Positions 2,473 through 24,146 of a stretch of 24,534 nucleotides of DNA are shown one piece after another. Position numbers and translations under genes: made by a program. Numbering within the stretch: the first letter of the stretch is position 1; every line of letters begins with the position of its first letter. The stretch comes from a virus, in the IMG/VR virus record IMGVR_UViG_3300029263_000510, positions 1 to 24,534 of that record. The stretch is one strand, 5' to 3'. The notes beneath the pieces were generated by a model that saw only the letters and a list, made by a program, of their open reading frames with translations, was not told the DNA's origin and ran no database searches.

Positions 2473-2475
2473 ATA
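2468..2475 (+). promoter_or_regulatory. T4-type late promoter TATAAATA
   Basis: Exact match to the T4 late promoter -10 box, overlapping the stop codon of the upstream CDS (2470-2472). By T4 spacing the transcript would begin near 2481, giving a leader of about 35 nt to the ATG at 2516, with GGAGAG at 2498-2503. Confidence 0.85.
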
Positions 2476-2515
2476 GAATAATAAGATATTAAACGATGGA
2501 GAGTGAAATCGTATC

Positions 2516-4750: not shown

Positions 4751-4753
4751 GAA

Positions 4754-7348: not shown

Positions 7349-7361
7349 TAGGAGAAAAATT

Positions 7362-7622
7362 ATGGCAACATATACAATAACAACAACTGATGCTGATGAA
7401 ATCTGTATGAAAACTGATATTATGTCAGTCGAAGACTGGATTAACGCAGCAGTATTAGGCAAAGTAGGTAGTACTAAAAAAAGACTACTTAATAAATACA
7501 TGCAACATTGTTCTGCAAATGAGATACAAATGAAAGTAACTCAAGCTGAACAAATAGCACATGCAAGAACGTTGGGTATAGCTGAATTTGTATCAGAAAT
7601 AGATGCATCAATAGATAAATAG
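7362..7622 (+). CDS. Small virion-cluster protein of unknown function (86 aa)
   Basis: AGGAG at 7350-7354 sits 7 bases before the ATG, a strong ribosome site. The protein begins MATYTITTTDADE and contains V-E-D-W-I-N-A-A-V followed by a mainly helical, Lys/Gln-rich remainder. From memory it resembles short proteins next to fibre genes in marine T4-like phages (M-x-T-Y-T-[IV]-T start, then [ED]-x-W-I-x-N-A-V); I know of no assigned role. There is no signal peptide or membrane segment. Its place between two fibre genes suggests an assembly factor or minor virion component, which is inference only. Confidence 0.75.
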   Translation: MATYTITTTDADEICMKTDIMSVEDWINAAVLGKVGSTKKRLLNKYMQHCSANEIQMKVTQAEQIAHARTLGIAEFVSEIDASIDK

Positions 7623-7645
7623 GTTTAGTAACAGGATAAAATAGG

Positions 7646-7653
7646 TATAAATA
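7646..7653 (+). promoter_or_regulatory. T4-type late promoter TATAAATA, abutting a start codon
   Basis: Exact TATAAATA with only 6 bases to the ATG at 7660. With T4 geometry the start of transcription would be about 7659, leaving essentially no leader and no Shine-Dalgarno on that transcript. Confidence 0.8.
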
Positions 7654-7659
7654 GACTAT

Positions 7660-10608: not shown

Positions 10609-10612
10609 ATAA

Positions 10613-13303
10613 ATGACAACTAAAATAAGATTATTACATGACACAGTTATAATACCAACTGGTTCAGTAGCAACTACACAAGGAGCATCTGATAATACCA
10701 CAAAGGTAGCAACTACAGCGTATGTAACGACTGCGTTAGCCAATTTGGCTGATAGCGCACCAGGTACATTGAATACTCTGAATGAGTTAGCTGCAGCTTT
10801 AGGTGATGATGCTAGTTTTAGTACAACTGTAACAAATAGTATTGCTTTAAAAGCGCCTTTGGCTAGTCCTACATTTACTGGGACTGCAGAAATACCTAAC
10901 CTAACAATTGGCGGGGCACAAGGTTCAGACGGACAAATATTAACTTCAACAGGAAGTGGTATTGGTTGGGAAGACGCAGCAGGTGGCGTAACCTTTAAGG
11001 CTTTTGGTACTTCTTCCATTATGGTTGGAGACAGCGCTACAGGAACTATTAATGCTGCAAATTATAATACTGGTTTAGGTGTTGATGTTTTTGCTGGTTT
11101 AACGTCAGGAGATAGAAACACAGCAGTTGGTTTTGAGGCTGGAAATGCTTTAACGGTACATGGTGATAATACTTTATTTGGATATCAAGCAGGAAAATTG
11201 CTTGGTGGTTCTTCAGACTCCTGGGAAGCTCAAAGAAATACGTTTATTGGATTCGGCGCGGGTCGTGATGTTGACGAAGGCAATAGAGCTATTGCAATAG
11301 GTTATAATGCTATGATGAGTAGCATAGGCACTACAAACAATGATGTAGCTATCGGCTATCAGGCAATGCAATATAGGAGTTCTAATACTGGAGATAGTGT
11401 CGCTATTGGTGGCAATGCAATGAGAGGCGATATTAATCAAGGCTATCAAAATGCAAATAGAAATGTTGCAGTTGGGTCTTACGCTTTACAGGTGCTAGAA
11501 ACTGGTGCTAACCAAAATACAGCCGTTGGTTGGTACACAGGTAAAAATTTAACAACTGGTAACAGCAATACTTTATTAGGTTCTGAAGCTGGAGAAGGTT
11601 TAATAACCGGACAAAAAAATTCATTTATTGGGTTTAGGTCTGGAGAGATGATTACTTCAGGAGGCTTTAATGTTATCCTTGGTGGTTATGACGGTAATGA
11701 AGGCGGTTTAGATATAAGAACATCTAGTAATCACGTTGTAATATCTGATGGCGCTGGTAATATTCGAATGTATGCTAAAAATAATGGTAATATTGGTATT
11801 GGAACGATTAGTCCAGACTCTATCTTACACGTGTTCGGAGCAGAGAACGGTGAAGGAGCTTCAGTAGGACAACTAAGAGTTCAGTCATCTACTGCATATG
11901 GTTCTAGTCCTAAAGCTGGAATGGTTTTTACAAATCAACACACCAGTGGTTCACAGGCAATCATGGGCGGCATTTATGTAGGTAAAGATACCACAGCTAA
12001 TGGTAACTATGCAGGTCACATGGCATTTAGCACTAGAGCGCATGGAGCTGTTTCAGTAGAAAGAATGCGTATTGATTCTTCAGGCAATGTAGGTATCGGA
12101 ACGACATTAGTTACAGATGCCGGTTTATGGTATGATGCCAATCCAGGTTACTTAGCTATATCACATTGGGCTACACCTCCTACACCTGCAGCCATGTTAC
12201 ATTTATCTGATAATTCAAATGATTTAGATGTTCCTCAAATAAGAATAGAAGGTAGAGAAAATGCAGGGGACACAAAATTAGATATATCAGTTAAAGATGC
12301 TGGAACTAGAATGAGTTTGATTGAGGGTTCAGGAGACGCTGGTCAAGGTTATGGTCTCATGGAATTTAAAACCAATGCAGCAGCTAATGCTTCACATGCA
12401 ACAAGAGGTGGATTTAAATTCAGTACAGTTGCTAATGCTAACAATTTATTTATTACTAACACTGGAAATATTGGTATCCAAACTGATTCTCCAGCGCATT
12501 TAGGAAGAACTGGTAGTGGTCCTGTGATTCATTTAGCTGGAAGTAACGATGACTGCCAACTTAGATTAGTAAATAGTATTCTTCATCATGACAATAGTGG
12601 TAATACAAATTTATATTTAAGAAATCATTACACTACTTTAGGTAATGATAATAATGCAAAGGTTACTTTAGAAGCAGGAAAGATAGTTTTTGCTACAAGT
12701 ACAAATTATACTAACCGATGGCAGATTGATAGTTCAGGACACTTCACACCTAGTCAACAACATACTGTTGATATTGGTGGAACAAATGCTGAAGTTAGAA
12801 ATATTTATGCACAAGGCATAAGCTTTGCTTCCCATGCTAATTACAGTGGAAAGACTTCAGAACTACTTGACGATTATGAAGAAGGAAACCATACAGCAAC
12901 GATTACTTGTGCAAGTGGAACTATAACTCTTTACTCAACTTATAATAATTTAGAATATACAAAAATTGGAAGATTAGTACACATACAAGGTAAGTTAGCT
13001 ATACAAGCTGTAAGTAGTCCTTCAGGAGCTACTACTATAAGTTTACCATTTGCAATTGCAAACTTAACTGACCAGGGAGGGGCTTGTTCACATATATCAA
13101 CTGGCTATTTTAATGGTGGTTCTATACATACTGGTTTTCATACAGTATATATGGAAATGACCGAAGGTCAATCTTATGTTAGACCCTATGTATTAAAACC
13201 TAGTAGTACAGCAGGTAATGCTCCCGGAACACATAATATAGGAGATGGTTACACAGCAACTGGGTCAGATATATACCTGAATTTTTCATATATAGCTGCA
13301 TAA
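10613..13303 (+). CDS. Tail-fibre-like protein with beta-roll repeats and DDYEEG tip (896 aa)
   Basis: AGGA at 10602-10605 (spacing 7) within the end of the previous gene serves as its ribosome site. Residues about 22-90 are the shared N-terminal module. Residues about 169-361 hold eleven N-x-[AVLF]-[VIFL]-G-x-x-[AST]-[GML] units (NTAVGFEAG, NTLFGYQAG, NTFIGFGAG and so on), a pattern resembling left-handed beta-rolls such as YadA-type adhesin heads. Shaft motifs GNIGIGTISP and NVGIGTT follow. The C-terminal part opens with L-L-D-D-Y-E-E-G (from about residue 751), then an Y-T-K-I-G-R-L-V-H-I-Q-G strand and L-P-F; this segment is, from memory, widespread at the C-termini of phage and prophage tail proteins. 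A host-contacting tip is inferred. There is no S74 domain. Confidence 0.8.
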   Translation: MTTKIRLLHDTVIIPTGSVATTQGASDNTTKVATTAYVTTALANLADSAPGTLNTLNELAAALGDDASFSTTVTNSIALKAPLASPTFTGTAEIPNLTIGGAQGSDGQILTSTGSGIGWEDAAGGVTFKAFGTSSIMVGDSATGTINAANYNTGLGVDVFAGLTSGDRNTAVGFEAGNALTVHGDNTLFGYQAGKLLGGSSDSWEAQRNTFIGFGAGRDVDEGNRAIAIGYNAMMSSIGTTNNDVAIGYQAMQYRSSNTGDSVAIGGNAMRGDINQGYQNANRNVAVGSYALQVLETGANQNTAVGWYTGKNLTTGNSNTLLGSEAGEGLITGQKNSFIGFRSGEMITSGGFNVILGGYDGNEGGLDIRTSSNHVVISDGAGNIRMYAKNNGNIGIGTISPDSILHVFGAENGEGASVGQLRVQSSTAYGSSPKAGMVFTNQHTSGSQAIMGGIYVGKDTTANGNYAGHMAFSTRAHGAVSVERMRIDSSGNVGIGTTLVTDAGLWYDANPGYLAISHWATPPTPAAMLHLSDNSNDLDVPQIRIEGRENAGDTKLDISVKDAGTRMSLIEGSGDAGQGYGLMEFKTNAAANASHATRGGFKFSTVANANNLFITNTGNIGIQTDSPAHLGRTGSGPVIHLAGSNDDCQLRLVNSILHHDNSGNTNLYLRNHYTTLGNDNNAKVTLEAGKIVFATSTNYTNRWQIDSSGHFTPSQQHTVDIGGTNAEVRNIYAQGISFASHANYSGKTSELLDDYEEGNHTATITCASGTITLYSTYNNLEYTKIGRLVHIQGKLAIQAVSSPSGATTISLPFAIANLTDQGGACSHISTGYFNGGSIHTGFHTVYMEMTEGQSYVRPYVLKPSSTAGNAPGTHNIGDGYTATGSDIYLNFSYIAA
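10676..10882 (+). repeat. Shared fibre N-terminal module, copy 4
   Basis: About 69 codons with T-A-Y-V-T-T-A-L-A-N-L as in copy 1 and K-A-P-L-A-S-P-T as in copy 2, so it combines features of both. This is consistent with recombination or gene conversion among copies. Confidence 0.85.
11117..11695 (+). repeat. Eleven N-x-A-V-G-type units
   Basis: Coding repeats of 9 residues separated by linkers of variable length, from NTAVGFEAG (11117) to NVILGGYDG (ending 11695). Several linkers contain L-T-T-G or similar. They are inferred to stack as a beta-roll. Confidence 0.75.
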
Positions 13304-13318
13304 GAATTTAACAATTAT

Positions 13319-13335
13319 GTCTATCGGAGATAGGC
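13319..13335 (+). other. Small inverted repeat upstream of 95-aa gene
   Basis: GTCTATCGGAGATAGGC can pair as 7 bp (one G-U) around a GGA loop in the 54-base gap between two genes. No T run follows, so it is not a classical terminator. It could be an RNA pause or processing site, or chance. Confidence 0.35.
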
Positions 13336-13357
13336 ACGGACAAAGGAAAAAAATAAA

Positions 13358-13645
13358 ATGGCAATAACAAAAGAAACAGTCGAAGACAAAATAGAAATTG
13401 TAGGAAACTATAAATCAATACAGGTGCGAACAGCTACTATTATCAAAGAAGATGGAGTTGAACTTACAAGGTCTTTTAATAGGAAAGTACTAGATTGCGT
13501 ATTGTCTGTAGAGAATGATGACGATACTTGGACTCATACTGATACAGATGTATCAAGCGAAAGCTCAGAAGTTCAAGGTATAGCAACAGCAGTATGGACA
13601 ACATCTGTTAAGAACGCTAAAAAAGCAGCTAATGAAGCAGCGTAA
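13358..13645 (+). CDS. Small virion-cluster protein of unknown function (95 aa)
   Basis: AGGA at 13344-13347 precedes the ATG by 10 bases. The protein begins MAITKETVEDKIEIVG and has a beta-rich first half (S-I-Q-V-R-T-A-T-I-I, V-E-L-T-R-S-F), an acidic middle and the motif D-V-S-S-E-S-S-E-V-Q-G-I-A-T-A-V-W-T. I recall similar short proteins beside fibre genes of marine T4-like phages, with no known function. There is no membrane segment or signal peptide. The gene is 11 bases upstream of the S74 fibre gene, paralleling the 86-aa gene that precedes the other S74 fibre. Confidence 0.75.
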   Translation: MAITKETVEDKIEIVGNYKSIQVRTATIIKEDGVELTRSFNRKVLDCVLSVENDDDTWTHTDTDVSSESSEVQGIATAVWTTSVKNAKKAANEAA

Positions 13646-13656
13646 GGAATAATAAT

Positions 13657-16506
13657 ATGGCACTCACAAAAATACCAGCAGGATTATTAGATACGACAGC
13701 TCATGTTGATTTATTAGATAACGAAAAAATAAGATTAGGCACAAACCAAGATTTAGAACTTTATCATGATGGCTCTAATAGTTATATAAATGATGTAGGA
13801 ACAGGAAGTTTATATATAAAGGCTACTAATTTAACTTTAGCAGATGCGGCAGGTGAACAATTTTTAAATGCTTACTCTAATGCTGGAGTCGTTCTGTATC
13901 ACAATAATGTACAAAAAATAGAAACAACAGCTGCTGGCGCATCAGTAACTGGTAACCTTGCAGTATCAGGTAATCTCACAGTAAGTGGAACGACTACCGA
14001 ATTAGATACAACAAATTTAAACGTTACAGATAAAAATATAACACTTAACTATCATGCTTCAAGCGATACTTCATCTGGTGTAGATGGTGCTGGTATTACA
14101 ATTCAAGATGCTGTAAATGCATCAACAGACGCAACACTTAATTGGTCTGCATCAAACGACAGATTTGTAATGTCACATGGCTTACAAGTAACTTCAGGCA
14201 ACGTTGGTATTGGAATTGCTAGTCCAGATCACACATTACATGTTTTAAGTAGTTCACAATCAATGGTAGAATTTGCTTCTAGTAATGCATCACCAAAAAT
14301 TAATTTTGCAAGAAGTGGTGCACCGACTGCGTTTATACAACATCATGAACCAGGTGCGTCGGGTACAGGATCTTTTAGATTCGCCACCGGTTCTGGGCAT
14401 AGCCCAACCGTTACAATGACTATAAGTGAAGATAATAAAGTTGGTATAGGAACAGATTCTCCAAATGAAATGCTTATGGTGCGACAAACTTCTGGAACCA
14501 CAATGGTTAAAACAGAAGTTGCAGCAAATAGTGTAGTTGGTTTCAATATCAAAAAGACTGGAGCTACTACTCAAGAATGGAAAATTGTAGATGGACAAAC
14601 AGCAAATGGTGTGCTTGAAATATATGATGTTACTGATTCACGAAGTGTCATGGCATTTAAAGGTGATGGCAAAGTTGGTATAGGAACGAGTAGCATTGAT
14701 AATAATGCGAAACTTCATATAGAAGATAGTGCATATCCAATTATAAATTTAGATAGAAGTAGTTCTTTAACTACTGGCAACCACTTAGGTTATATTAATT
14801 TCCAAAACAATGGAGATGTTTACGGGTACATGGGAGCATGGGTAGAGTCAGCAAGTGGAACTGATGGAAAACTTGTTTTTGCTACACAAAATGGCACTAG
14901 CTTAACTGATAAAATGACTATTAATAGTACAGGGCATTTAACACTTAACCCTGCTAGTGGTTTCTCTGGATTAAACAACAGTCTTTTAGGAAGCACAAAT
15001 GGGTACATGTACGCAATGGGTGGAACGGCTGGACTATACTTAGCAGATAACTCAGCTCTTGAAAATGCCATTGGCATAAGAGACGCCGGTTTTATAGATT
15101 TTATTACAGGTGGAAGTGGCGAAAAAATGCGTATAACTTCGGGAGGGTCATTGCTCGTTGGTCGTACTGTTGAAAACAGTTCATCATCAGGACATAGGTT
15201 TACTAACTCAGGTTTTGCAGCACACATTGTGGCTAATGATTATCCATTATTACTGAACAGGCTTAGTAGTGACGGCCCTCTTTTAACATTCCGTAAGGAT
15301 AGTGCTACAGTTGGCGCTGTTGACAGTTATGCCGGTATAATTCAATTTGGTCAAGGCAACGTAAATCTTAAATTTTCTAATGCCGCTGATGCAATCATCC
15401 CTGCAAATGATTCAGGCTCAAATAACAACGCTGCTATAGATTTAGGCCTTGCTGGAGTTCGCTTCAAAGACCTCTTCTTATCAGGGACAACAAATACTGG
15501 TGCAGTTACTTTAGCTTCTGGCGGAGTACTTAGTCAAACAGTAGTTTCAGGTGGGGGAGTTTATCATACTATAAACCATACAGGAAACGAAGCATGGAGT
15601 TGGGCAGCACAATCAGGTCAAGGTTCAAATGATTATTTAGATGTAGGTATTTCGGGTGGTACAAGAGTTATGACTTGGCACGAAGATGGAAAAGTTGGTA
15701 TAGGTACCGCGGATCCTGGCGTAGCACTGACTGTTCAAACCTATACAGGTGAAACTGATAGCTTCGTATCAGGATTAATGCTTACTGCTACTTCTACTGG
15801 TACAACAATTCCTGGATTTGGACCTGCAATACAGTTTCAAGGAGAAAGAAACAATGGCGTAGTTCAGAATACAGGACTTATTGCAAACATGGCAGATGTT
15901 AATTCCGGCGCTAACATATCTTCAGGATTAAGATTCTATTGTTCTACAGCTGGAGTTTTAAACGAAAGAGTGAGGATGCATTATGATGGAGAAGTTTCAA
16001 TTGGAAATACAGTCACTATTGGCTCAGGTTCTAAAACTTTTCTTTCAGTAGGAGATGGTTCAGGAAATGCTTCATTAACGATATATACAGGTACAAGTAA
16101 CTATGGTTATTTAAACTTTGCAGACGGAACATCTGGAGCAGCTGCAGACCCAGGCTATATTAGATATAACCATAATGACAATACTTTATATACCAATAGA
16201 GTTTTTTCTGGCGACTTTAATGATACTTCAGATGAAAGACTAAAGGAAAACATAGTTGATTTAGCAGACGGAAGTACAAATATAATAAAACAATTAAAAC
16301 CAAGAACATTTGATTGGAAAGATTCAGATACTCCTAATCAAACTGGAAGAGCAGGATTCATTGCTCAAGAGATAGCAACAGTTTTACCAAACGAAGTTTA
16401 TGGTTATTTAGACGAAACGAAGTCTGTTAATGTAACAGCAATAGTAGCACATCTAGTTAAAACGGTGCAAGAATTAGAAGCAAGAATTAATACATTGGAA
16501 GGATAA
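13657..16506 (+). CDS. Fibre/structural protein with S74 self-cleaving chaperone (949 aa)
   Basis: AAGGA at 13644-13648 lies 8 bases before the ATG. The N-terminus differs from the other fibres: MALTKIPAGLLD, then L-G-T-N-Q-D-L-E-L-Y-H-D-G-S-N-S-Y-I and a strand-turn segment with T-G-N-L-A-V-S-G-N-L-T-V-S-G-T-T (about residues 105-125). This suggests a different attachment partner. The shaft has four V-G-I-G-x-x-x-x units. The C-terminus is Peptidase_S74-like: S858-D859 with K863 (Ser + 5), K-E-N-I, F-D-W-K-D, A-G-F-I-A-Q-E-I, V-L-P-N-E-V, and a helical V-Q-E-L-E-A-R-I-N-T-L-E end. Autocleavage after S858 would release about 91 residues once the trimer has formed. It is the last gene before the gp13 promoter. 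Confidence 0.85.
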   Translation: MALTKIPAGLLDTTAHVDLLDNEKIRLGTNQDLELYHDGSNSYINDVGTGSLYIKATNLTLADAAGEQFLNAYSNAGVVLYHNNVQKIETTAAGASVTGNLAVSGNLTVSGTTTELDTTNLNVTDKNITLNYHASSDTSSGVDGAGITIQDAVNASTDATLNWSASNDRFVMSHGLQVTSGNVGIGIASPDHTLHVLSSSQSMVEFASSNASPKINFARSGAPTAFIQHHEPGASGTGSFRFATGSGHSPTVTMTISEDNKVGIGTDSPNEMLMVRQTSGTTMVKTEVAANSVVGFNIKKTGATTQEWKIVDGQTANGVLEIYDVTDSRSVMAFKGDGKVGIGTSSIDNNAKLHIEDSAYPIINLDRSSSLTTGNHLGYINFQNNGDVYGYMGAWVESASGTDGKLVFATQNGTSLTDKMTINSTGHLTLNPASGFSGLNNSLLGSTNGYMYAMGGTAGLYLADNSALENAIGIRDAGFIDFITGGSGEKMRITSGGSLLVGRTVENSSSSGHRFTNSGFAAHIVANDYPLLLNRLSSDGPLLTFRKDSATVGAVDSYAGIIQFGQGNVNLKFSNAADAIIPANDSGSNNNAAIDLGLAGVRFKDLFLSGTTNTGAVTLASGGVLSQTVVSGGGVYHTINHTGNEAWSWAAQSGQGSNDYLDVGISGGTRVMTWHEDGKVGIGTADPGVALTVQTYTGETDSFVSGLMLTATSTGTTIPGFGPAIQFQGERNNGVVQNTGLIANMADVNSGANISSGLRFYCSTAGVLNERVRMHYDGEVSIGNTVTIGSGSKTFLSVGDGSGNASLTIYTGTSNYGYLNFADGTSGAAADPGYIRYNHNDNTLYTNRVFSGDFNDTSDERLKENIVDLADGSTNIIKQLKPRTFDWKDSDTPNQTGRAGFIAQEIATVLPNEVYGYLDETKSVNVTAIVAHLVKTVQELEARINTLEG

Positions 16507-16511
16507 ACTCT

Positions 16512-16519
16512 TATAAATA
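16512..16519 (+). promoter_or_regulatory. T4-type late promoter TATAAATA for the neck/terminase operon
   Basis: Exact match in the 33-base gap before gp13. The predicted transcript start near 16525 leaves a leader of about 15 nt that still contains AGGA at 16529-16532, 7 bases before the ATG at 16540. Confidence 0.85.
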
Positions 16520-16539: not shown

Positions 16540-17505
16540 ATGGCAAAACCAAATAGTAAAACAACATTTATAGATTACTGCTTAAGAAGTTTAGGTGCGC
16601 CTGTAATTGAAATCAATATTGATGACGACCAAATAGATGATAGAGTAGACGAAGCTCTTCAATTCTATGAATTTTATCATGCTGATGCTGTAGAAAAAAC
16701 ATTTTTAAAACACAAAGTAACAAATTCAGAATTAACTTTAACCGGTTCAGTTGCTGGTAATTTCTCAGTAGGAGAAAAGATTACCGGTTCATCAACAGGT
16801 GCAGTTGCTACAATTAAAACTGGTGTTGGAACTAAAATTACATATAGCGCATTAAAAGATTCAAATACACCGTTTACTACAACGGAAACAATAACAGGTG
16901 GAAGTTCAGGAGTTACAGCAGTTATAAGTGCTATAACAAAAGGTGATATCGAAAACGGATACATTACTTTAAACGATTTAGTAAGAGATGTCGTAAGAGT
17001 TATGCCTATAAGAGATACTGTATCATCAACTGATATGTTCGATATTAGATATCAAATGCATTTAAATGATATGCATTCAGTTGGATTCATGGGTAGTCTT
17101 ACAGATTACGTAATGACACAACAGTTTTTAGCACTTTTAGACCAAGTAATTGATAGTGATGAGAAACATATTAACTTTGAAAGACATAAAAACAGATTAG
17201 AAATATTTATGGACTGGGACAAAGAAGTTTTAGTTGATGATTATTTAGTTGTTGAATGTTACAGAGTTATAGACCCTAATACATATACAGATGTATACAA
17301 CGATTATTTCTTAAAAAGATATGCAACAGCGTTAATCAAAAGACAATGGGGTACAAACCTAATTAAGTTCGAAGGAATGGTAATGCCAGGTGGAGTAACA
17401 TTTAATGGACGTCAAATATTTGATGACGCAAACGAAGAAATTACAAAATTAGAGGAAGAAGCTAGATTGAACTGGGAACAGCCAGTCGACTTCATGATAG
17501 GATAA
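16540..17505 (+). CDS. 13: Neck protein gp13 (head completion), 321 aa
   Basis: T4-family gp13 sits with gp14 at the filled head's exit and is needed before the tail can join. Family-like segments flank the protein: N-terminal T-F-I-D-Y-C-L-R-S-L-G-A-P-V-I-E-I-N, then D-D-Q-I-D-D-R-V-D-E-A-L, and C-terminal Y-T-D-V-Y-N-D-Y-F-L-K-R-Y, I-K-R-Q-W-G-T-N-L-I-K-F-E-G and N-G-R-Q-I-F-D-D-A. Between them, residues about 66-136 hold two related beta units (V-G-E-K-I-T-G-S-S-T-G-A-V-A and T-E-T-I-T-G-G-S-S-G-V-T-A) that I do not remember from other gp13s and that look inserted. The start is fixed by the good ribosome site. It heads the operon through the ATP-grasp gene. Confidence 0.9.
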   Translation: MAKPNSKTTFIDYCLRSLGAPVIEINIDDDQIDDRVDEALQFYEFYHADAVEKTFLKHKVTNSELTLTGSVAGNFSVGEKITGSSTGAVATIKTGVGTKITYSALKDSNTPFTTTETITGGSSGVTAVISAITKGDIENGYITLNDLVRDVVRVMPIRDTVSSTDMFDIRYQMHLNDMHSVGFMGSLTDYVMTQQFLALLDQVIDSDEKHINFERHKNRLEIFMDWDKEVLVDDYLVVECYRVIDPNTYTDVYNDYFLKRYATALIKRQWGTNLIKFEGMVMPGGVTFNGRQIFDDANEEITKLEEEARLNWEQPVDFMIG

Positions 17506-17508
17506 ACC

Positions 17509-18447
17509 ATGCCGAGAAACGTATACTTTTCTCAGGCCGTCAAAAGTGAACAACACTTATACGAAGACCTGATAATAGAATCCCTAGGAATATATGGACA
17601 AGACGTCTATTACATTCCACGCACAATAGTAAATAGAGATAGTGTTTTAAATGACGACCCAGCGTCAACATTTGACGATGCTTATCTTATGGAAATGTAT
17701 ATTGATAACGCAGAAGGCTTTGATGGTGCTGGTGATTTATATAGTAAGTTTGGATTAGATATAAAAGACGAAGCTACATTTGTAGTATCACGTAGAAGAT
17801 GGGACGATAGAGTTGGCCCGTTCTCTAGTCAGGTAGAAAATCCAAGACCTACTGAAGGAGATTTAATCTTCTTACCGATGACAAATAATTTCTTTGAGAT
17901 TAATTTTGTTGAAGACGAACAACCATTTTATCAATTATCAAATTTGCCAGTCTATACTATGAAGTGTTCATTGTTTGAATATAATGATGAAGATTTCGAA
18001 ACAGGTATCGTAGATATAGATGACTCAGTATCTCAAGTAGGATATCAATTACCAATAGACGTAACTATTTCTGGCGGAAATCATTTTGAAGTTGGTGAAA
18101 TTGTAAGACAAACTGTTGATGCAAGTGTAACACCTAATGTAATAGTATTTGGAGAAGTTCAACAAAGAACTAAATCATCAAATATATTAAGTAAATTGTG
18201 GGTATCTAATATTGGAACAACCGGTTCAACATTAGCTAAAACATTTACTCAAGGCGGAACATTAACAGGAGATACATCAGAATATAGTGGTACTATTGCT
18301 AAAGTATATAGTGATGTCACAGATACCACAGGAAATTCTTGGTCAACTGATGAACAAGCTCAAAACGTAGAATTTGAAATAGATGCAGATGGATTTATGG
18401 ACTTCTCAGAATCTAATCCATTCGGCGACCCATCGGAGACTTACTAA
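17509..18447 (+). CDS. 14: Neck protein gp14 (head completion), 312 aa
   Basis: Begins 3 bases after gp13; its ribosome site AGGA (17498-17501, spacing 7) is inside gp13's end. The N-terminal half (Y-E-D-L-I-I-E-S-L-G-I-Y-G-Q-D-V-Y-Y-I-P-R and S-R-R-R-W-D-D-R-V-G-P) is typical of T4-like gp14, as is the C-terminal D-F-S-E-S-N-P-F-G-D-P. Residues about 180-270 carry G-x-x-F-x-V-G-E and T-G-D-T-S-E-Y-S-G-T-I-A strands of the same general kind as the gp13 insert. It is longer than T4 gp14 (256 aa, from memory). It works with gp13 to form the collar below the portal. Confidence 0.9.
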   Translation: MPRNVYFSQAVKSEQHLYEDLIIESLGIYGQDVYYIPRTIVNRDSVLNDDPASTFDDAYLMEMYIDNAEGFDGAGDLYSKFGLDIKDEATFVVSRRRWDDRVGPFSSQVENPRPTEGDLIFLPMTNNFFEINFVEDEQPFYQLSNLPVYTMKCSLFEYNDEDFETGIVDIDDSVSQVGYQLPIDVTISGGNHFEVGEIVRQTVDASVTPNVIVFGEVQQRTKSSNILSKLWVSNIGTTGSTLAKTFTQGGTLTGDTSEYSGTIAKVYSDVTDTTGNSWSTDEQAQNVEFEIDADGFMDFSESNPFGDPSETY

Positions 18448-19190
18448 TGTTTGGAGACCATTTTTATCATTCAACAATGAGAAAATCAGTGGCTGTATTT
18501 GGTACACTGTTTAATAATATTCAAGTAGTAAGAAAAAAGGCTGATGGCAGCACTATAAACCAAATAAGAGTTCCTCTTGCCTATGGTCCTAAAGATAAAT
18601 ATCTAGCTCGTATTGATAGTAACGAAACTTCATCAATGGGTATTAAATTGCCAAGAATGGCTTTTGATATAACTGGTATTACATTAGACACTACTCAAAA
18701 AATGGCTAAGAGAAATATCATATCAGAAACACATGGCTCAGACATTACTAAAAAGAAAACAATAAAACATTATACTTCTTATGATATTGGTATGTCATTA
18801 TATATTTTAGCTAAAAATCAAGATGATGGACTACAAATTGTTGAACAAATATTACCGTATTTTCAACCAGAGTATAATGTAGCTATTACACCAGTAGCAG
18901 GATTTAATTATAAACAAGATGTTTCTGTTATACTTGGTAGTATCAGTATTGATGACCAATATGAAGGAGACTTTACTGAAAGAAGAGTACTTGTATATCA
19001 ATTAGATTTTACAATGAAGATGAAATTCTTCGGTCCAACAGCTGACCAAAAAGTTATACGTGAGGTCAATTTAGACTTCCATGAAAAAGGTAATGTAGGC
19101 AGAATGTTTGAAGAAATGGACTTTACAGTTGGAGCTTCGGATACTGCAGATAGTTTCACAGTAACAGAAACTAAAACTGAAGGTGGATAA
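18447..19190 (+). CDS. 15: Tail completion / sheath stabiliser gp15, 247 aa
   Basis: Overlaps gp14 by one base (TAATG), with GGAGA at 18435-18439 as ribosome site, so translational coupling is likely. T4 gp15 forms a hexameric ring ending the sheath and tube and joins the tail to the head neck. Supporting segments are F-Y-H-S-T-M-R-K-S-V-A-V-F-G-T-L-F-N, I-K-L-P-R-M-A-F-D-I-T-G-I, Q-D-D-G-L-Q-I-V-E-Q-I-L-P-Y-F and V-Y-Q-L-D-F-T-M-K-M-K-F-F-G-P. The length is close to the T4 protein (272 aa, from memory). There are no anomalies. Confidence 0.9.
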   Translation: MFGDHFYHSTMRKSVAVFGTLFNNIQVVRKKADGSTINQIRVPLAYGPKDKYLARIDSNETSSMGIKLPRMAFDITGITLDTTQKMAKRNIISETHGSDITKKKTIKHYTSYDIGMSLYILAKNQDDGLQIVEQILPYFQPEYNVAITPVAGFNYKQDVSVILGSISIDDQYEGDFTERRVLVYQLDFTMKMKFFGPTADQKVIREVNLDFHEKGNVGRMFEEMDFTVGASDTADSFTVTETKTEGG

Positions 19191-19597
19191 TGGATAAAAA
19201 AGAAAAAATGACAGCAAGTTTAGAAAAGAATTTGCCAGCAGTTAACAATAGACCTATAAAGATAGATAAAGATATTAAAGACGATTATGATTTTTCTCGT
19301 AAAACTTATAAAGACTTAATATATACAGGAACAAGGTCAATGGATGTACTTGCTGAGTTAGCAAGAGAATCAGAACATCCAAGGGCATTTGAAGTACTTG
19401 CTCAAACAATAAAAAGTATTAGTGATACTACTGAAAAGCTTATGTCTTTGCAAAAGAAAAAGAAAGAATTAACAGCAGAAGAAGACGAAAAGCAAAAAAA
19501 CGTGACGAATAATAACATGTTTGTGGGTAGTACAACAGACTTACAAAGGTTGTTATTAAATAGAGATAATGTAATTGATGCAAAAGTTAAAGAATAA
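19190..19597 (+). CDS. 16: Terminase small subunit gp16, 135 aa
   Basis: Overlaps gp15 by one base (TAATG), with AGG at 19181-19183 upstream. The central region D-Y-D-F-S-R-K-T-Y-K-D-L-I-Y-T-G, S-E-H-P-R-A-F-E-V-L-A-Q-T-I-K and T-T-E-K-L-M-S-L-Q-K-K-K-K is helical and matches T4-like gp16, which forms rings that regulate the packaging motor. A Lys/Glu-rich linker and a short M-F-V-G-S-T-T-D-L-Q-R-L-L tail follow. It is a little shorter than T4 gp16 (164 aa, from memory). It overlaps the start of gp17. Confidence 0.88.
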   Translation: MDKKEKMTASLEKNLPAVNNRPIKIDKDIKDDYDFSRKTYKDLIYTGTRSMDVLAELARESEHPRAFEVLAQTIKSISDTTEKLMSLQKKKKELTAEEDEKQKNVTNNNMFVGSTTDLQRLLLNRDNVIDAKVKE

Positions 19598-21191
19598 TGA
19601 GTTTGGTTATCTAGGCAATCCTCAAGTAAAAAGAGATGGCGTAGAAACCGAATTTACAAAAGAAGACATTCTAGAATACCAAAAATGTATGCTCGAGCCA
19701 GCATATTTTGCTAGGAAATATATCAAAATTATAAATCTAGATGAGGGCTTAGTCCCATTTGATTTATATCCTTATCAAGAAAAAATGTTTAAACATTTTA
19801 ATGAGAATAGATTTAGTATAGTATTAGCATGTCGACAAAGTGGTAAATCAATATCTTCAGTTGTATATCTCTTATGGTATGCAGTATTTCATCCAGAGAA
19901 AACGATTGCTATATTAGCAAACAAAGGAGCAGTTGCAAGAGAGATGCTCGCGCGTATCACGCTCGCGCTAGAAAATTTACCGTTCTTTTTACAGCCTGGA
20001 TGCAAGGCTTTAAATAAAGGAAGCATAGAGTTTAGTAATAATAGTAAGATAGTAGCTTCAGCTACAAGCGGTAGTTCAATAAGGGGTATGTCTATTAACT
20101 TACTCTTCCTTGATGAGTTTGCCTTTGTAGAAAATGATGCACAATTCTATACATCAACATATCCTGTAGTATCATCTGGTAAAGATACTCAGATTATAGT
20201 ATGTTCTACAGCAAATGGAATAGGTAATGTGTACCATAAACTATGGGAAGGCGCAGTACAAAAGACAAATGAGTTTTATCCATTTAGAGTAGATTGGTGG
20301 GATGTTCCAGGAAGAGATGATAAGTGGAAACAAACTACAGTATCTAATACTTCTGAATTACAGTTCGAACAAGAGTTTGGTAACACATTTCATGGAAGAG
20401 GTAATACGTTAATTAGTGCTAATCATTTATTAGCTCAAATGAGTATAGACCCAGAGTTTTATAAAGAGAATGTTTATATATACAAACAACCTATAGAAAG
20501 TCATGAATATGTAATGACAGTAGATGTTTCAAAAGGTAGAAACCAAGATTATAGTACATTTACTATTATCGATGTAAGCGAACAACCGTTTGAACAAGTA
20601 GCAGTATTTAGAGACAACAATATATCTCCAATGTTATTACCTGATATAATCTATAAGTATGCTAATTTGTATAATGAAGCGTATGTTGTAGTAGAAAGTA
20701 ATGACCAAGGAGCTGTAGTTTGTAATGGATTATACTATGATTTAGAATATGAAAACATATTCGTAGAATCTTCTATCAAAGCAAATGCTATTGGCGCGAC
20801 AATGACACGAAGAGTAAAACGTATTGGTTGTTCAAGTATAAAAGACTTAATAGAACAAGGTAAACTTAAAATTAATGATGCCAATACAATTGTAGAAATG
20901 AGCACATTCGTAAGTAAAGGGAATAGTTATCAAGCTCAATCTCCAAATCATGATGATTTAATGATGAACTTAGTTATGTTTGCATGGTTTACTACAACAG
21001 ATGTATTTCAAGCTTTAACAAATATCGATATGAAAGATATGTTATACAGAGAAAGATTAGCTGCAATACAAGATGACATGTTACCGTTTGGTTTTGTCGA
21101 GAGTGGGAACTATGAAAAGGATAAATATACTAAAGACGATGATGGGAACATCTGGTTCGAACAAGAATGGACAGGAAATGCAAAATTTTAA
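19578..21191 (+). CDS. 17: Terminase large subunit gp17 (packaging ATPase/nuclease), 537 aa
   Basis: ATP-driven DNA packaging motor that also cuts concatemers into headfuls. The ATPase domain has Walker A C85-R-Q-S-G-K90-S and Walker B L-L-F-L-D179-E180. The RNase H-like nuclease has D316, D324 (V-D-V-S-K-G-R-N-Q-D), E373 (V-V-E-S-N-D) and D459/D460 (H-D-D-L); the spacings match T4 gp17 D401, D409, E458 and D542. The start is taken as ATG 19578, the first ATG of the frame, overlapping gp16 by 20 bases; a TTG one codon earlier is less likely. The only nearby ribosome-site-like sequence is GAGA at 19563-19566, so coupling to gp16 is probable. It is shorter than T4 gp17 (610 aa, from memory) but has all catalytic residues. 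Confidence 0.95.
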   Translation: MQKLKNNEFGYLGNPQVKRDGVETEFTKEDILEYQKCMLEPAYFARKYIKIINLDEGLVPFDLYPYQEKMFKHFNENRFSIVLACRQSGKSISSVVYLLWYAVFHPEKTIAILANKGAVAREMLARITLALENLPFFLQPGCKALNKGSIEFSNNSKIVASATSGSSIRGMSINLLFLDEFAFVENDAQFYTSTYPVVSSGKDTQIIVCSTANGIGNVYHKLWEGAVQKTNEFYPFRVDWWDVPGRDDKWKQTTVSNTSELQFEQEFGNTFHGRGNTLISANHLLAQMSIDPEFYKENVYIYKQPIESHEYVMTVDVSKGRNQDYSTFTIIDVSEQPFEQVAVFRDNNISPMLLPDIIYKYANLYNEAYVVVESNDQGAVVCNGLYYDLEYENIFVESSIKANAIGATMTRRVKRIGCSSIKDLIEQGKLKINDANTIVEMSTFVSKGNSYQAQSPNHDDLMMNLVMFAWFTTTDVFQALTNIDMKDMLYRERLAAIQDDMLPFGFVESGNYEKDKYTKDDDGNIWFEQEWTGNAKF

Positions 21192-22350
21192 CGACTTTAC
21201 AACTGGAAAAACAGTAATAACAGAGGAAGAGAAAACTTATAGGTATGTATACCTATGGTATGATGACCCTGAAGACCCTGATGACCCAGAATCTACGGCC
21301 GATGATTTTATAAAAGAAGGAGATTCTGTAGGCTTAAAAGGATTTAAAGTCGATGTACAAGGTGCTTATTCTGATTTAGAAGATGGAGTAAGGTATATCT
21401 ATGATGGTATGTCAGATAAAAAAATAAGAAAGTTTAGAATAGATGAAAACACATTAGTGTTTGTAAGAGCTCCAGTTACTAAAAGAAAAGCTTGGTCAGA
21501 CTTTTTAACTCAGTTAGAAAGAGCTGGCGTTGTATGTGTTAACACACGTGCATGTATGGAGATAACATCTGATAAATATAGAACAAGTTTATATCTTGCA
21601 GAAGCAGAACTTAATCAACCTAAGACAGTTTTAGTTCATCATCCAGAAAAAGCAATACCAGCAATGAAAAGACTCGGTGGTAAATACCCAGTAATTCTTA
21701 AAACACTTACTGGTTCATTAGGTATTGGTGTTATTAAAGTAGATTCAGAAAGTTCATTACATTCTACCGTGCAGTTACTATATAAGTTAGACCCAAATAT
21801 GGGTGTGCTGTTACAAGAAATGATTAAGGACTTTACATTTGATATACGTGCTCATGTTATTGGTGGTAAATTCCATGGAGCAATAAAAAGACCGGTAGTA
21901 GCAAAGGATTTTAGAAGTAACGTATCACTAGGTTCTGTTCCAGCACCTATTGAGCTAACTGAATTAGAGATAGAACATGTTGAAAGAGCAGCTAGAGCTG
22001 TTGATGGTCTATGGGTAGGAGTAGATATATTCCCATCTAAAGATAGAGATAATGAACCACCAATATTTATTGAGATCAATTCAACACCAGGAACAAAAGG
22101 ATATAGAAAAGCTACAGGCGAAAACTTAGCTAAGAATATCCTAGTAAAATTTAAAAACAGAGATTTTTGGCTTAAACCTAATACGTATAAGTCAATGTTC
22201 GAAAATATACAAACAGATAGCATGGAGTTTGAAGGCGACATTGTTAAATGGTCTAAAGACGGTATACAATACGAACATGATATAGTAGGGATATCAAATA
22301 AAAACCCTATAATAGAGTACAATTCTATAGAAGTCGAGTTACTTCGTTAG
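21178..22350 (+). CDS. RimK-family ATP-grasp amino-acid/peptide ligase, 390 aa
   Basis: Start ATG 21178 overlaps gp17 by 14 bases; earlier in-frame ATGs lie deep in the gp17 code, and no good ribosome site is seen (GGA is too close), so coupling is likely. Residues 93-157 align with the RimK pre-ATP-grasp region (V-F-V-R-A-P, S-D-K-Y-R-T). The ATP-grasp region has P-V-I-L-K175, the loop G179-S-L-G-I-G184, D222-I-R-A-H, D244-F-R-S-N248, and metal ligands D283, E299 and N301 (E-I-N-S-T-P-G), matching D248, E260 and N262 of E. coli RimK. RimK adds glutamate to the C-terminus of ribosomal protein S6 using ATP. Here the substrate is unknown: virion protein, host S6 or a small peptide are all possible. 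Extras are an N-terminus with an acidic D-D-P-E-D-P-D-D-P stretch (29-37) and an unassigned C-terminal extension (about 333-390). All catalytic-site residues I checked are intact. Confidence 0.85.
   Translation: MQNFNDFTTGKTVITEEEKTYRYVYLWYDDPEDPDDPESTADDFIKEGDSVGLKGFKVDVQGAYSDLEDGVRYIYDGMSDKKIRKFRIDENTLVFVRAPVTKRKAWSDFLTQLERAGVVCVNTRACMEITSDKYRTSLYLAEAELNQPKTVLVHHPEKAIPAMKRLGGKYPVILKTLTGSLGIGVIKVDSESSLHSTVQLLYKLDPNMGVLLQEMIKDFTFDIRAHVIGGKFHGAIKRPVVAKDFRSNVSLGSVPAPIELTELEIEHVERAARAVDGLWVGVDIFPSKDRDNEPPIFIEINSTPGTKGYRKATGENLAKNILVKFKNRDFWLKPNTYKSMFENIQTDSMEFEGDIVKWSKDGIQYEHDIVGISNKNPIIEYNSIEVELLR
21239..21256. repeat. 18-bp palindrome (8-bp arms, 2-bp centre)
   Basis: ATAGGTATGTATACCTAT, a perfect inverted repeat about 60 bases inside the ATP-grasp gene, encoding part of T-Y-R-Y-V-Y-L-W. 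It could form an RNA hairpin or be a protein-binding site, but AT-rich coding sequence yields such palindromes by chance. Confidence 0.5.
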
Positions 22351-22362
22351 AAAACAAATTGT

Positions 22363-22370
22363 TATAAATA
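22363..22370 (+). promoter_or_regulatory. T4-type late promoter TATAAATA for gp18-gp19
   Basis: Exact match in the 83-base gap between the ATP-grasp gene and gp18. The predicted transcript start near 22376 gives a leader of about 58 nt, ending in AGAGGA (22421-22426), 7 bases from the gp18 ATG. This is the longest leader of the four promoters. Confidence 0.85.
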
Positions 22371-22433: not shown

Positions 22434-24146
22434 ATGGCATTTCAAGTATCACCAGGCGTCGAGGTAAAAGAAATCGACGCAACGAATGTAGTTCCAGCCG
22501 TATCAACCAGCATTGGTGGATTCGCGGGATCATTCAACTGGGGTCCAGTGGAGCAATTAGTAACAGTAGGTTCTGAACAAGAACTTGCAAATACTTTTGG
22601 CGCTCCAGACGATTCCACAGCTAAACACTTCTTAGTAGCAGCATCTTTTTTAAAGTATGGCAATGCACTAAAAGTGGTTCGAGTAGCTTCCGGTCATTTA
22701 AACGCGACCGCACAGGGTACAGGACAGCTGATAAAAAATAATGAACATTATGAAAATAATTATGCAGCGGGTCAACTAAATTTGGGTAATTGGGCAGCTA
22801 AACATCCAGGCGTACTGGGTAATAGCTTAAAGGTATCAATGATTTCAGCAGGAGCTTCACCATTTAGTGGTTGGGCTTATGCTAGCAATTTTGATTCTGC
22901 ACCAGGTACATCTACAGCAGCAACAGCAGTCGCCGTCACAAACGACGAATTGCATATTGCAGTTATAGATGAAGACGGAGCGATCTCCGGAACAGCTGGG
23001 ACAGTATTAGAAACATTTGGGTTTGTATCACAAGCTTCAGATGCTAAGAAAGACGATGGTACCTCACTTTATTACGTTGATGTTATTACTACTCAATCTA
23101 ACTATATTCGTTGGATTGACCATAATACCACTAACCTAAATGAAGCCGGATTTACCCTAGCAGCAGCGAAAGCAGCCAACACAGACAGTGAAGGTGCTAA
23201 CCAATTTAAGACTCATAGCTCAGCGATAGAGGATTCACTTTCAGGTGGAACCGACGATAACACACCAACAACAGCAGAGATAGCAACAGGATTCGATCTT
23301 TTATCAGATGCAGAAACTGTAGACGTTAACTTACTTTTTGCAGCAGCAGACGCCGATGGCGCTGAAGCAATTGCAGAAGATTTAATAACTATAGTAAATG
23401 CAAGAAAAGATTGTATGGCGTTTATATCTCCACCATTAGAAGACACTGTTAATAATGCTACTCCAGCAGCAAGCGTAAAAGCTTTTGCTGATGGTTTAAC
23501 ATCAACATCTTACGCTTCATGTGATTCAACAGCACTATATGTATATGACAAATATAACGACAAATACAGATATATAGCTGCTTCAGGTCATATGGCAGGA
23601 CTTTGCGCTAATACTGATTCAGTAGCAGATGCATGGTTCTCACCAGCAGGAGTAAACAGAGGACAACTTTTAGGAGTAACTAAATTAGCATTTAATCCTA
23701 AGAAAGCAGACAGGGATTCTTTATATAAAGCAAGAGTCAACCCTATAGTATCATTACCTGGACAAGGTACTTTACTATTTGGAGACAAAACTTTATTAAG
23801 TAGACCTTCAGCATTCGACAGAATTAATGTTAGAAGGCTGTTTATAGCATTAGAAAAGGCAGTTAGCACAGCAGCTAAAGCACAACTTTTCGAATTTAAC
23901 GACGAATTTACAAGAGCACAGTTCAGAAACTTAGTTGAACCGTTCTTAAGAGACGTCAAAGGAAGACGTGGTCTTTCAGACTTTTCAGTAGTCTGTGATA
24001 CTACCAATAACACTAGCTCAGTAATTGACGGTAATAAATTTGTAGCTGATATCTTTATCAAGCCTGCAAGAAGTATTAACTTCATAACATTGAGCTTCGT
24101 AGCAACGAGGTCCGGAGTAGAATTCTCCGAGATTTCAGGTTCATAG
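22434..24146 (+). CDS. 18: Tail sheath protein gp18, 570 aa
   Basis: Major contractile sheath subunit that polymerises around the gp19 tube. The start is fixed by AGAGGA 7 bases upstream and by the typical opening S-P-G-V-E-V-K-E-I-D followed by G-G-F-A-G-S-F-N-W-G-P-V. The C-terminal domain is strongly family-like: F-R-N-L-V-E-P-F-L-R-D-V-K-G-R-R-G-L, F-S-V-V-C-D-x-T-N-N-T, I-D-x-N-K-F-V-A-D-I-F-I-K-P-A-R-S-I-N-F-I. The central region is more variable, as expected of the surface domain. It is shorter than T4 gp18 (659 aa, from memory). It starts a new transcription unit with gp19. Confidence 0.95.
   Translation: MAFQVSPGVEVKEIDATNVVPAVSTSIGGFAGSFNWGPVEQLVTVGSEQELANTFGAPDDSTAKHFLVAASFLKYGNALKVVRVASGHLNATAQGTGQLIKNNEHYENNYAAGQLNLGNWAAKHPGVLGNSLKVSMISAGASPFSGWAYASNFDSAPGTSTAATAVAVTNDELHIAVIDEDGAISGTAGTVLETFGFVSQASDAKKDDGTSLYYVDVITTQSNYIRWIDHNTTNLNEAGFTLAAAKAANTDSEGANQFKTHSSAIEDSLSGGTDDNTPTTAEIATGFDLLSDAETVDVNLLFAAADADGAEAIAEDLITIVNARKDCMAFISPPLEDTVNNATPAASVKAFADGLTSTSYASCDSTALYVYDKYNDKYRYIAASGHMAGLCANTDSVADAWFSPAGVNRGQLLGVTKLAFNPKKADRDSLYKARVNPIVSLPGQGTLLFGDKTLLSRPSAFDRINVRRLFIALEKAVSTAAKAQLFEFNDEFTRAQFRNLVEPFLRDVKGRRGLSDFSVVCDTTNNTSSVIDGNKFVADIFIKPARSINFITLSFVATRSGVEFSEISGS

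What the first reader, a model, noticed from the sequence alone, without database searches (positions are those of the whole stretch)
21178..22350. RimK-like ATP-grasp ligase embedded between terminase and tail-sheath genes
Seen: a complete RimK-type site (K175, G179-G184 loop, D222-I-R, D244-F-R-S-N, D283/E299/N301) in a gene overlapping gp17 and ending just before the gp18 promoter. Known: RimK family enzymes ligate glutamate or similar to C-termini or peptides; in T4 itself gene 18 directly follows 17. Inference: a late-expressed ligase in the morphogenesis operon could modify a virion protein C-terminus, or host S6, during assembly. I cannot say from memory how widespread this placement is.
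Basis: partly seen in the sequence, partly recalled or inferred. Interest (0 to 1): 0.75.

Follow-up and report, generated by a model that had tools for sequence, protein, structure and literature searches.

The report
Phage RimK ligase with capsid-targeting-like leader
A marine T4-like phage carries, between its DNA-packaging and tail-sheath genes, an intact enzyme of the kind that adds glutamates to protein tails; its start resembles the tag T4 uses to load proteins into its head, so the enzyme may be injected into the next host cell.

Summary
Window 21178-22350 encodes a complete 390-aa RimK-family ATP-grasp ligase with every named residue in place, overlapping gp17 and ending just before a late promoter and gp18. 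Phage rimK genes linked to gp17/gp18 were already reported in ocean metagenomes (Monier 2008), so this is not a new kind of gene.

What I add:
(1) The gp17-gp18 gap is a recurrent RimK slot. Sister phages hold at least four distinct RimK types there, or nothing.
(2) The family's commoner home is regA-[rimK]-gp43, usually as a RimK plus RimB-like retropepsin fusion. The window's ligase clusters with protease-free regA-slot genes. Its folded C-terminal tail is a protease-domain remnant, without the DTG, matching the slot's own fusions, so the gene looks chimeric.
(3) Nearly all these enzymes carry an extra N-terminal leader with the spacing of T4's capsid-targeting sequence. The window's leader is arranged like T4 IPI's.

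Best explanation: a late-made, capsid-packaged, injected glutamyl ligase acting on host protein tails early in the next infection. Ribosomal S6 is the leading candidate substrate. The ligase identity is near certain. Packaging is inferred at about 0.55, and S6 as target is weaker. No virion or activity data exist for this clade.

The parts
21178..22350 (+). rimK-family ATP-grasp ligase gene (390 aa), last gene of the gp13-gp17 late operon
   Evidence: conserved gp17-rimK-gp18 order in IMG/VR relatives
21178..21225 (+). N-terminal leader, residues 1-16 (MQNFNDFTTGKTVITE): aromatics at 4 and 7, then an [IL]xE site; outside the RimK fold (model residue 21 aligns to RimK residue 1); candidate capsid-targeting/propeptide sequence
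21178..21191 (+). 14-nt overlap with the end of gp17
21238..22170 (+). RimK pre-ATP-grasp and ATP-grasp fold (residues 21-331)
   Evidence: AF2 pLDDT 88.3; Z 29.6 to P. syringae RimK 7qys, 29.2 to RimK of 5zk6
21700..22080 (+). catalytic/nucleotide residues K175, G179-G184 loop, D222-I-R224, D244-F-R-S-N248, D283, E299, N301
   Evidence: invariant columns in A2
22204..22347 (+). C-terminal tail, residues 343-390: small beta domain, remnant of a RimB-like retropepsin lacking the catalytic DTG
   Evidence: HMM 28.7 bits vs best of 500 shuffles 6.6; five strands at high pLDDT
19578..21191 (+). gp17 terminase large subunit
   Evidence: Pfam Terminase_6N/6C
22434..24146 (+). gp18 tail sheath
   Evidence: Pfam Phage_sheath_1/1C
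16512..16519 (+). T4-type late promoter box TATAAATA upstream of gp13
22363..22370 (+). T4-type late promoter box TATAAATA between rimK and gp18
16540..19597 (+). gp13, gp14, gp15, gp16 of the same late operon

Best explanation
The gene encodes an active RimK-type ATP-dependent glutamyl ligase. It is made late, as the last gene of the gp13-gp17 operon. Its N-terminal leader probably targets it into the prohead core, and the head protease gp21 then probably cuts after an [IL]xE site, as for the T4 internal proteins and Alt. The mature enzyme would then be injected with the DNA and add glutamate(s) to the C-terminus of a host protein at the start of the next infection. The most likely substrate is ribosomal protein S6 (RpsF), which would bias the host ribosome. 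Shown here: fold, intact conserved active site, late-operon position, the leader with T4 spacing across the family, and ancestry shared with RimK-RimB fusions. Inferred: glutamate as donor, packaging and injection, and S6 as acceptor.
For: Ligase: (RimK folds Z 28.6-29.6, including the RimK of the RimK-RpsF entry 5zk6). R97, R224 and N301 are invariant; by alignment they match R64, R189 and N262, which bind glutamate in P. aeruginosa RimK (PMC10092738). Poly-Glu chemistry: sister enzymes carry C-terminal PF05618/DTG domains, the RimB retropepsin that removes glutamates from RpsF (PMC11957791). Leader: T4 IPIII targeting depends on residues 4 and 7 and processing on 8 and 10 (PMC9026906). That spacing occurs in all 96 members of the main Mosig-type cluster (85 by ATG plus 11 GTG starts), in 9/9 of the nearest relatives (L053 cluster) and in most slot fusions. 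It occurs in 1 of 200 Mosig proteins, the RimK itself, and in 7 of 1081 non-RimK ORFs versus 67 of 109 RimK ORFs. Run on T4, the same pattern hits only ipII and ipIII among annotated starts. T4 ipI has the window's arrangement: aromatics at 4 and 7 with the E further on. Window-type phages carry gp21, and their gp23 has an ISE-A site. L017, of the window clade, has a second leader-bearing late gene with a weak ADP-ribosyltransferase match. Yersinia phage GN1/YerA41 homologues are labelled structural protein, and YerA41 virions were analysed by LC-MS (PMC7354516).
Against: No virion proteomics, activity or substrate data exist for this clade. The window's own leader does not match the strict IPIII-spaced pattern, because the [IL]xE is displaced; MQNF lies in the gp17 overlap, so its invariance is confounded. 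The pattern was written after seeing some leaders, and its counts are not phylogenetically independent. At least one RimK type in the same slot (334 aa, L195) has no leader, and cyanophage RimKs have none. The GenBank 'structural' label was not traced to a peptide table, and the Yersinia homologue lacks this leader. The S7/R8/S14 part of the poly-Glu site of bacterial RimK has no evident counterpart.
Confidence: 0.55

Rival explanations
1. Intracellular host-takeover ligase, not packaged: made during infection and glutamylating S6 (or another translation protein) in the same cell to favour late phage mRNA, as proposed in 2008 by analogy with T7 kinase.
For: Monier 2008; the usual neighbours are regA and often a phage bS21 gene; phage bS21 is found in ribosome fractions (PMC6375957).
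Against: Does not explain a conserved extra-fold leader with T4 capsid-targeting spacing that is almost confined to this gene.
Confidence: 0.27
2. Assembly-time modifier of a virion protein: glutamylates the C-terminus of a head or tail protein.
For: Late operon and adjacency to gp17/gp18.
Against: Most relatives lie in the replication operon, not next to structural genes; many sister phages have no rimK in the slot, the gap there being 76-108 bp; the RimB-like domain points to poly-Glu substrates.
Confidence: 0.08
3. Small-molecule or cofactor ligase (MptN-, LysX-, CofF- or glutathione-like) used metabolically.
For: MptN and LysX NCBIfam models give strong sub-cut-off scores; ArgX/LysX folds are about as close as RimK.
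Against: All equivalog models are far below cut-off; the FRSN and E-x-N-S-x-P-G motifs are those of RimK; relatives are fused to a poly-Glu protease domain.
Confidence: 0.08
4. Decaying or inert ATP-grasp moron.
For: The protease domain has been lost and the tail is variable or absent.
Against: Invariant active site, dN/dS about 0.07-0.16, repeated re-occupation of the slot.
Confidence: 0.02

Closest known systems
Bacterial RimK (E. coli, Pseudomonas), S6:glutamate ligase
   Same: Fold (Z about 29) and ATP-grasp residues; R64/R189/N262 equivalents conserved
   Different: About 25% identity; extra 20-residue leader and C-terminal tail; S7/R8/S14 acceptor residues not evident; phage late operon
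Marine phage rimK of Monier et al. 2008 (PMC2530865)
   Same: Same gene family and same neighbours (regA, clamp loader, gp17, gp18); some with DUF785/PF05618
   Different: The sections read do not report the leader, multi-type occupation of the slot or the chimeric tail
RimBK hybrids (PMC11957791)
   Same: Ligase plus retropepsin in one chain, in sister phage genes
   Different: Described hybrids have RimB at the N-terminus; phage ones have it at the C-terminus; the window protein has lost the catalytic DTG
T4 internal proteins and Alt (capsid-targeted, injected)
   Same: Leader spacing (ipII/ipIII, ipI-like for the window), late synthesis, gp21-type site
   Different: Cargo is a glutamyl ligase; packaging not demonstrated
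Cyanophage 'ribosomal protein S6 glutaminyl transferase' (phrog_2599)
   Same: RimK-family ligase in T4-like marine phages
   Different: About 30% identity, no leader, other genomic positions

Membership tests
RimK family alpha-L-glutamate ligase (TIGR00768/PF08443) | Profile score above curated cut-off | tested here: met
   TIGR00768 150.2 vs 143.4 bits; PF08443 104.3 vs 21 bits
RimK family alpha-L-glutamate ligase (TIGR00768/PF08443) | ATP-grasp catalytic and Mg/nucleotide residues intact | tested here: met
   Invariant across 48 sequences
RimK family alpha-L-glutamate ligase (TIGR00768/PF08443) | Fold of RimK | tested here: met
   Z 29.6, rmsd 2.6 over 286 residues
Ribosomal protein S6-glutamate ligase (RimK equivalog PRK10446/NF007764) | Score above equivalog cut-off | tested here: not met
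   81.4 vs 331 bits; not filed as a RimK equivalog
Ribosomal protein S6-glutamate ligase (RimK equivalog PRK10446/NF007764) | Adds glutamate to the S6 C-terminus | not testable with these tools
   Needs a biochemical assay
LysX / MptN / CofF equivalogs | Score above equivalog cut-offs | tested here: not met
   125.8/275.6, 143.9/350, 81.9/300 bits
RimB-like retropepsin (PF05618) fusion | PF05618 match with catalytic DTG in the same protein | tested here: not met
   No PF05618 hit and no DTG in the window protein; only a remnant detectable with a family-specific HMM
T4-type capsid-targeted internal protein | N-terminal leader with aromatics at 4 and 7 and an [LI]xE site | tested here: met
   Aromatics at 4 and 7 and ITE at 14-16 (ipI-like arrangement); the strict ipIII spacing is not met by the window itself but is by its nearest relatives
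T4-type capsid-targeted internal protein | Prohead protease gp21 in the same phage group | tested here: met
   gp21 downstream in window-type contigs; gp23 has an ISE-A site
T4-type capsid-targeted internal protein | Present in the virion and processed | not testable with these tools
   Needs virion proteomics

The most novel reading that the evidence does not exclude
Hundreds of marine T4-like phages carry a capsid-packaged, injected protein-glutamylating enzyme (RimK, often with its own RimB-like eraser). It would act on the host translation machinery at the first moment of infection, a glutamylation counterpart of T4 Alt. In the window's lineage a chimeric, write-only version has replaced the writer-eraser fusion in a dedicated gp17-gp18 slot.
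Probability: 0.45. Interest if true: 0.8.

Novelty: new variant of a known kind. Interest (0 to 1): 0.6.

Why it matters
Phage rimK has been known since 2008 with no explanation beyond a general S6 idea. If the leader is a capsid-targeting sequence, these enzymes are injected effectors and the question becomes testable by virion proteomics of cultured phages such as Mosig. It would add protein glutamylation to the injected modifications phages use (Alt ADP-ribosylation being the model). It would also explain why several distinct RimK types recur in one slot of the head-tail operon.

Tried and rejected
Active RimK-RimB fusion in the window itself: rejected, no PF05618 hit and no DTG. Tail as disordered junk: rejected, it folds as five strands with high pLDDT and is conserved. 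Tail derived from Mosig-type protease: weak (9.8 bits vs shuffle maximum 8.0), whereas the slot-fusion HMM gives 28.7 vs 6.6. Eleven apparent leader-less Mosig-type genes: a start-codon artefact, they begin with GTG. Leader invariance explained wholly by the gp17 overlap: rejected, since it covers only about 4.7 codons and the leader also occurs in the regA slot. Genome-contig search for cellular sources gave no real cellular relative: two distant bacterial hits with very long tree branches, and one 'Thaumarchaeota' bin that is a T4-like phage contig. A second rimK copy in the same phage could not be tested; the records are fragments. Structure search of the fusion's protease domain alone was not possible; the ATP-grasp domain filled the list. 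Host identity and host S6 C-terminus could not be established.

Full report
OBSERVATION. The ORF at 21178-22350 (+) encodes 390 aa. It is a RimK-family ATP-grasp ligase: Pfam RimK E=7.8e-30, TIGR00768 E=7e-44 and above its cut-off, and PDB RimK chains at E down to 1e-24. In an alignment of 48 diverse phage relatives, R97, K133, K175, G179, G182, G184, D222, R224, R238, R246, N248, D283, E299 and N301 are invariant. Ligase-domain dN/dS is about 0.07-0.16 over dS 0.36-2.0. The gene overlaps gp17 by 14 nt. The four + strand exact late-promoter boxes TATAAATA in the window are at 2468, 7646, 16512 and 22363, each just upstream of a gene. Those at 16512 and 22363 bracket gp13-gp14-gp15-gp16-gp17-rimK. 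The total number of boxes, 5, is what chance gives; only their placement is informative.

PRIOR ART. Monier et al. 2008 (PMC2530865) already found more than 100 ocean metagenome contigs with phage rimK. They lay beside regA, clamp-loader, gp17 or gp18 genes, some had a C-terminal DUF785 (PF05618), and the authors suggested S6 modification by analogy with T7 kinase. The presence and placement of the gene are therefore known.

DISTRIBUTION. IMG/VR relatives at 75-99% identity all sit gp17-rimK-gp18 where both flanks are present. Most of those kept sit elsewhere, in gp45-gp44-gp62-regA-[rimK]-gp43. The Mosig-like ones there are RimK plus a C-terminal PF05618/DTG domain: 113 of 113 ORFs with a closed 3' end. 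In GenBank phages, Mosig, Melnitz, several cyanophages and Yersinia phages carry homologues, none of those inspected in the gp17-gp18 gap.

THE GP17-GP18 SLOT. Among contigs whose gp17 is 78-96% identical to the window's, the gap is either empty (76-108 bp) or filled by one of several types: the window type, 475-488-aa RimK+DTG fusions only about 27-35% identical to the window, a 334-aa RimK, or a Melnitz-like 376-aa RimK (L204). In the tree the slot fusions form one clade (99/100), the 334-aa type another (100/100), L204 groups with Melnitz (100/99), and the window type groups with the protease-free regA-slot genes L053/L054 (100/100). Long branches make the deepest joins unsure. So the slot has been occupied several times by different RimK lineages.

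CHIMERIC TAIL. Residues 343-390 score 28.7 bits against an HMM of the slot fusions' protease domain (best of 500 shuffled tails 6.6), but only 9.8 bits against the Mosig-type protease (shuffles up to 8.0). The catalytic DTG is missing. AlphaFold (mean pLDDT 88.3) folds the tail as five strands at high confidence. Some close relatives end before the tail. The simplest reading is that a regA-slot-type ligase replaced the ligase part of a resident slot fusion, leaving a piece of its protease.

LEADER. The RimK fold begins at window residue 21, which aligns to RimK residue 1 (7qys Z 29.6; 5zk6 Z 29.2). The preceding residues begin MQNFNDFTTGKTVITE. In T4 IPIII, capsid targeting depends on residues 4 and 7, and gp21 processing on 8 and 10, cleaving after Glu (PMC9026906). 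The pattern aromatic-x2-aromatic-hydrophobic-x-E near the start occurs in 96/96 of the main Mosig-type cluster, counting 11 with GTG starts, in 9/9 of the L053 cluster, and in most slot fusions. In the Mosig proteome it occurs once in 200 proteins, in the RimK. Across fetched loci it occurs in 67/109 RimK ORFs against 7/1081 others (nominal Fisher P 8e-72, not phylogenetically independent). As a positive control, in T4 it hits only ipII and ipIII among annotated starts. T4 ipI has aromatics at 4 and 7 with a later Glu, as the window does. Within the window clade the leader varies from 16 to 27 residues but ends in [IL]xE (ITE, ISE, LSE, LKE) just before the fold. The same phages carry gp21, and their gp23 has ISE followed by Ala. 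L017 has another leader-bearing gene between gp15 and gp16 with a sub-threshold ART-PolyVal match (E 0.0012), reminiscent of Alt. Caveats: MQNF falls in the gp17 overlap, the pattern was written after seeing leaders, and the 334-aa slot type and cyanophage RimKs lack it.

MECHANISM. Glutamate as donor is supported by the conserved counterparts of R64, R189 and N262 (PMC10092738) and by kinship with fusions to RimB, which removes glutamates from RpsF (PMC11957791). Packaging and injection are inferred from the leader. S6 as acceptor is inferred from the RimK/RimB precedent and from the neighbourhood of regA and phage bS21 in many regA-slot contigs. The window protein would be a write-only enzyme.

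VERDICT. Observation confirmed, interpretation partly supported. A new variant of a known kind of phage gene, whose capsid-targeting-like leader makes its role directly testable.

Noticed in passing
L017 and L020 2567-3004 (between gp15 and gp16): 146-aa protein with a CTS-like leader (MESFKSYITEA) and, in L017, a sub-threshold ART-PolyVal (ADP-ribosyltransferase) match; possible second capsid cargo in window-type phages.
   Followed up: partly
L261 (phage C48C1) 42294-42908, 46825-48045, 48081-48449: Three further proteins with CTS-like leaders, one a very basic 123-aa protein and one DUF6267; candidate internal head proteins.
   Followed up: partly
L001 5893-7278 (MT647606.1 3351-4736): Mosig RimK-RimB fusion is annotated 'putative glutathione synthetase'; probably a misannotation.
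   Followed up: yes
L003 5743-7164 (LC779065.1): Yersinia phage GN1 RimK+PF05618 protein is labelled 'structural protein'; the YerA41 virion was studied by LC-MS, but the peptide table was not seen.
   Followed up: partly
L177: Contig PAWD01000042.1, binned as a Thaumarchaeota MAG, carries T4-like gp45-gp44-gp62-regA-rimK-DNA polymerase genes; probably a misbinned phage.
   Followed up: partly
L025 1346-3305 and L026 850-2883: HTVC008M and Melnitz carry other inserted genes (dioxygenase, tryptophan halogenase; F5/8 type C protein) between gp16 and gp17, so the terminase region is a general insertion hotspot.
   Followed up: no
window 541-16506: Five large fibre-like ORFs; several share an N-terminal repeat around 'LNTLNELAAALGDDA', and two (7660-10608, 13657-16506) end like S74 intramolecular-chaperone domains, by eye from the translations.
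   Followed up: no
window 16700-16930 and 18080-18330: gp13 and gp14 each contain a Gly/Thr-rich stretch that looks like an inserted beta domain, by eye from the translations.
   Followed up: no
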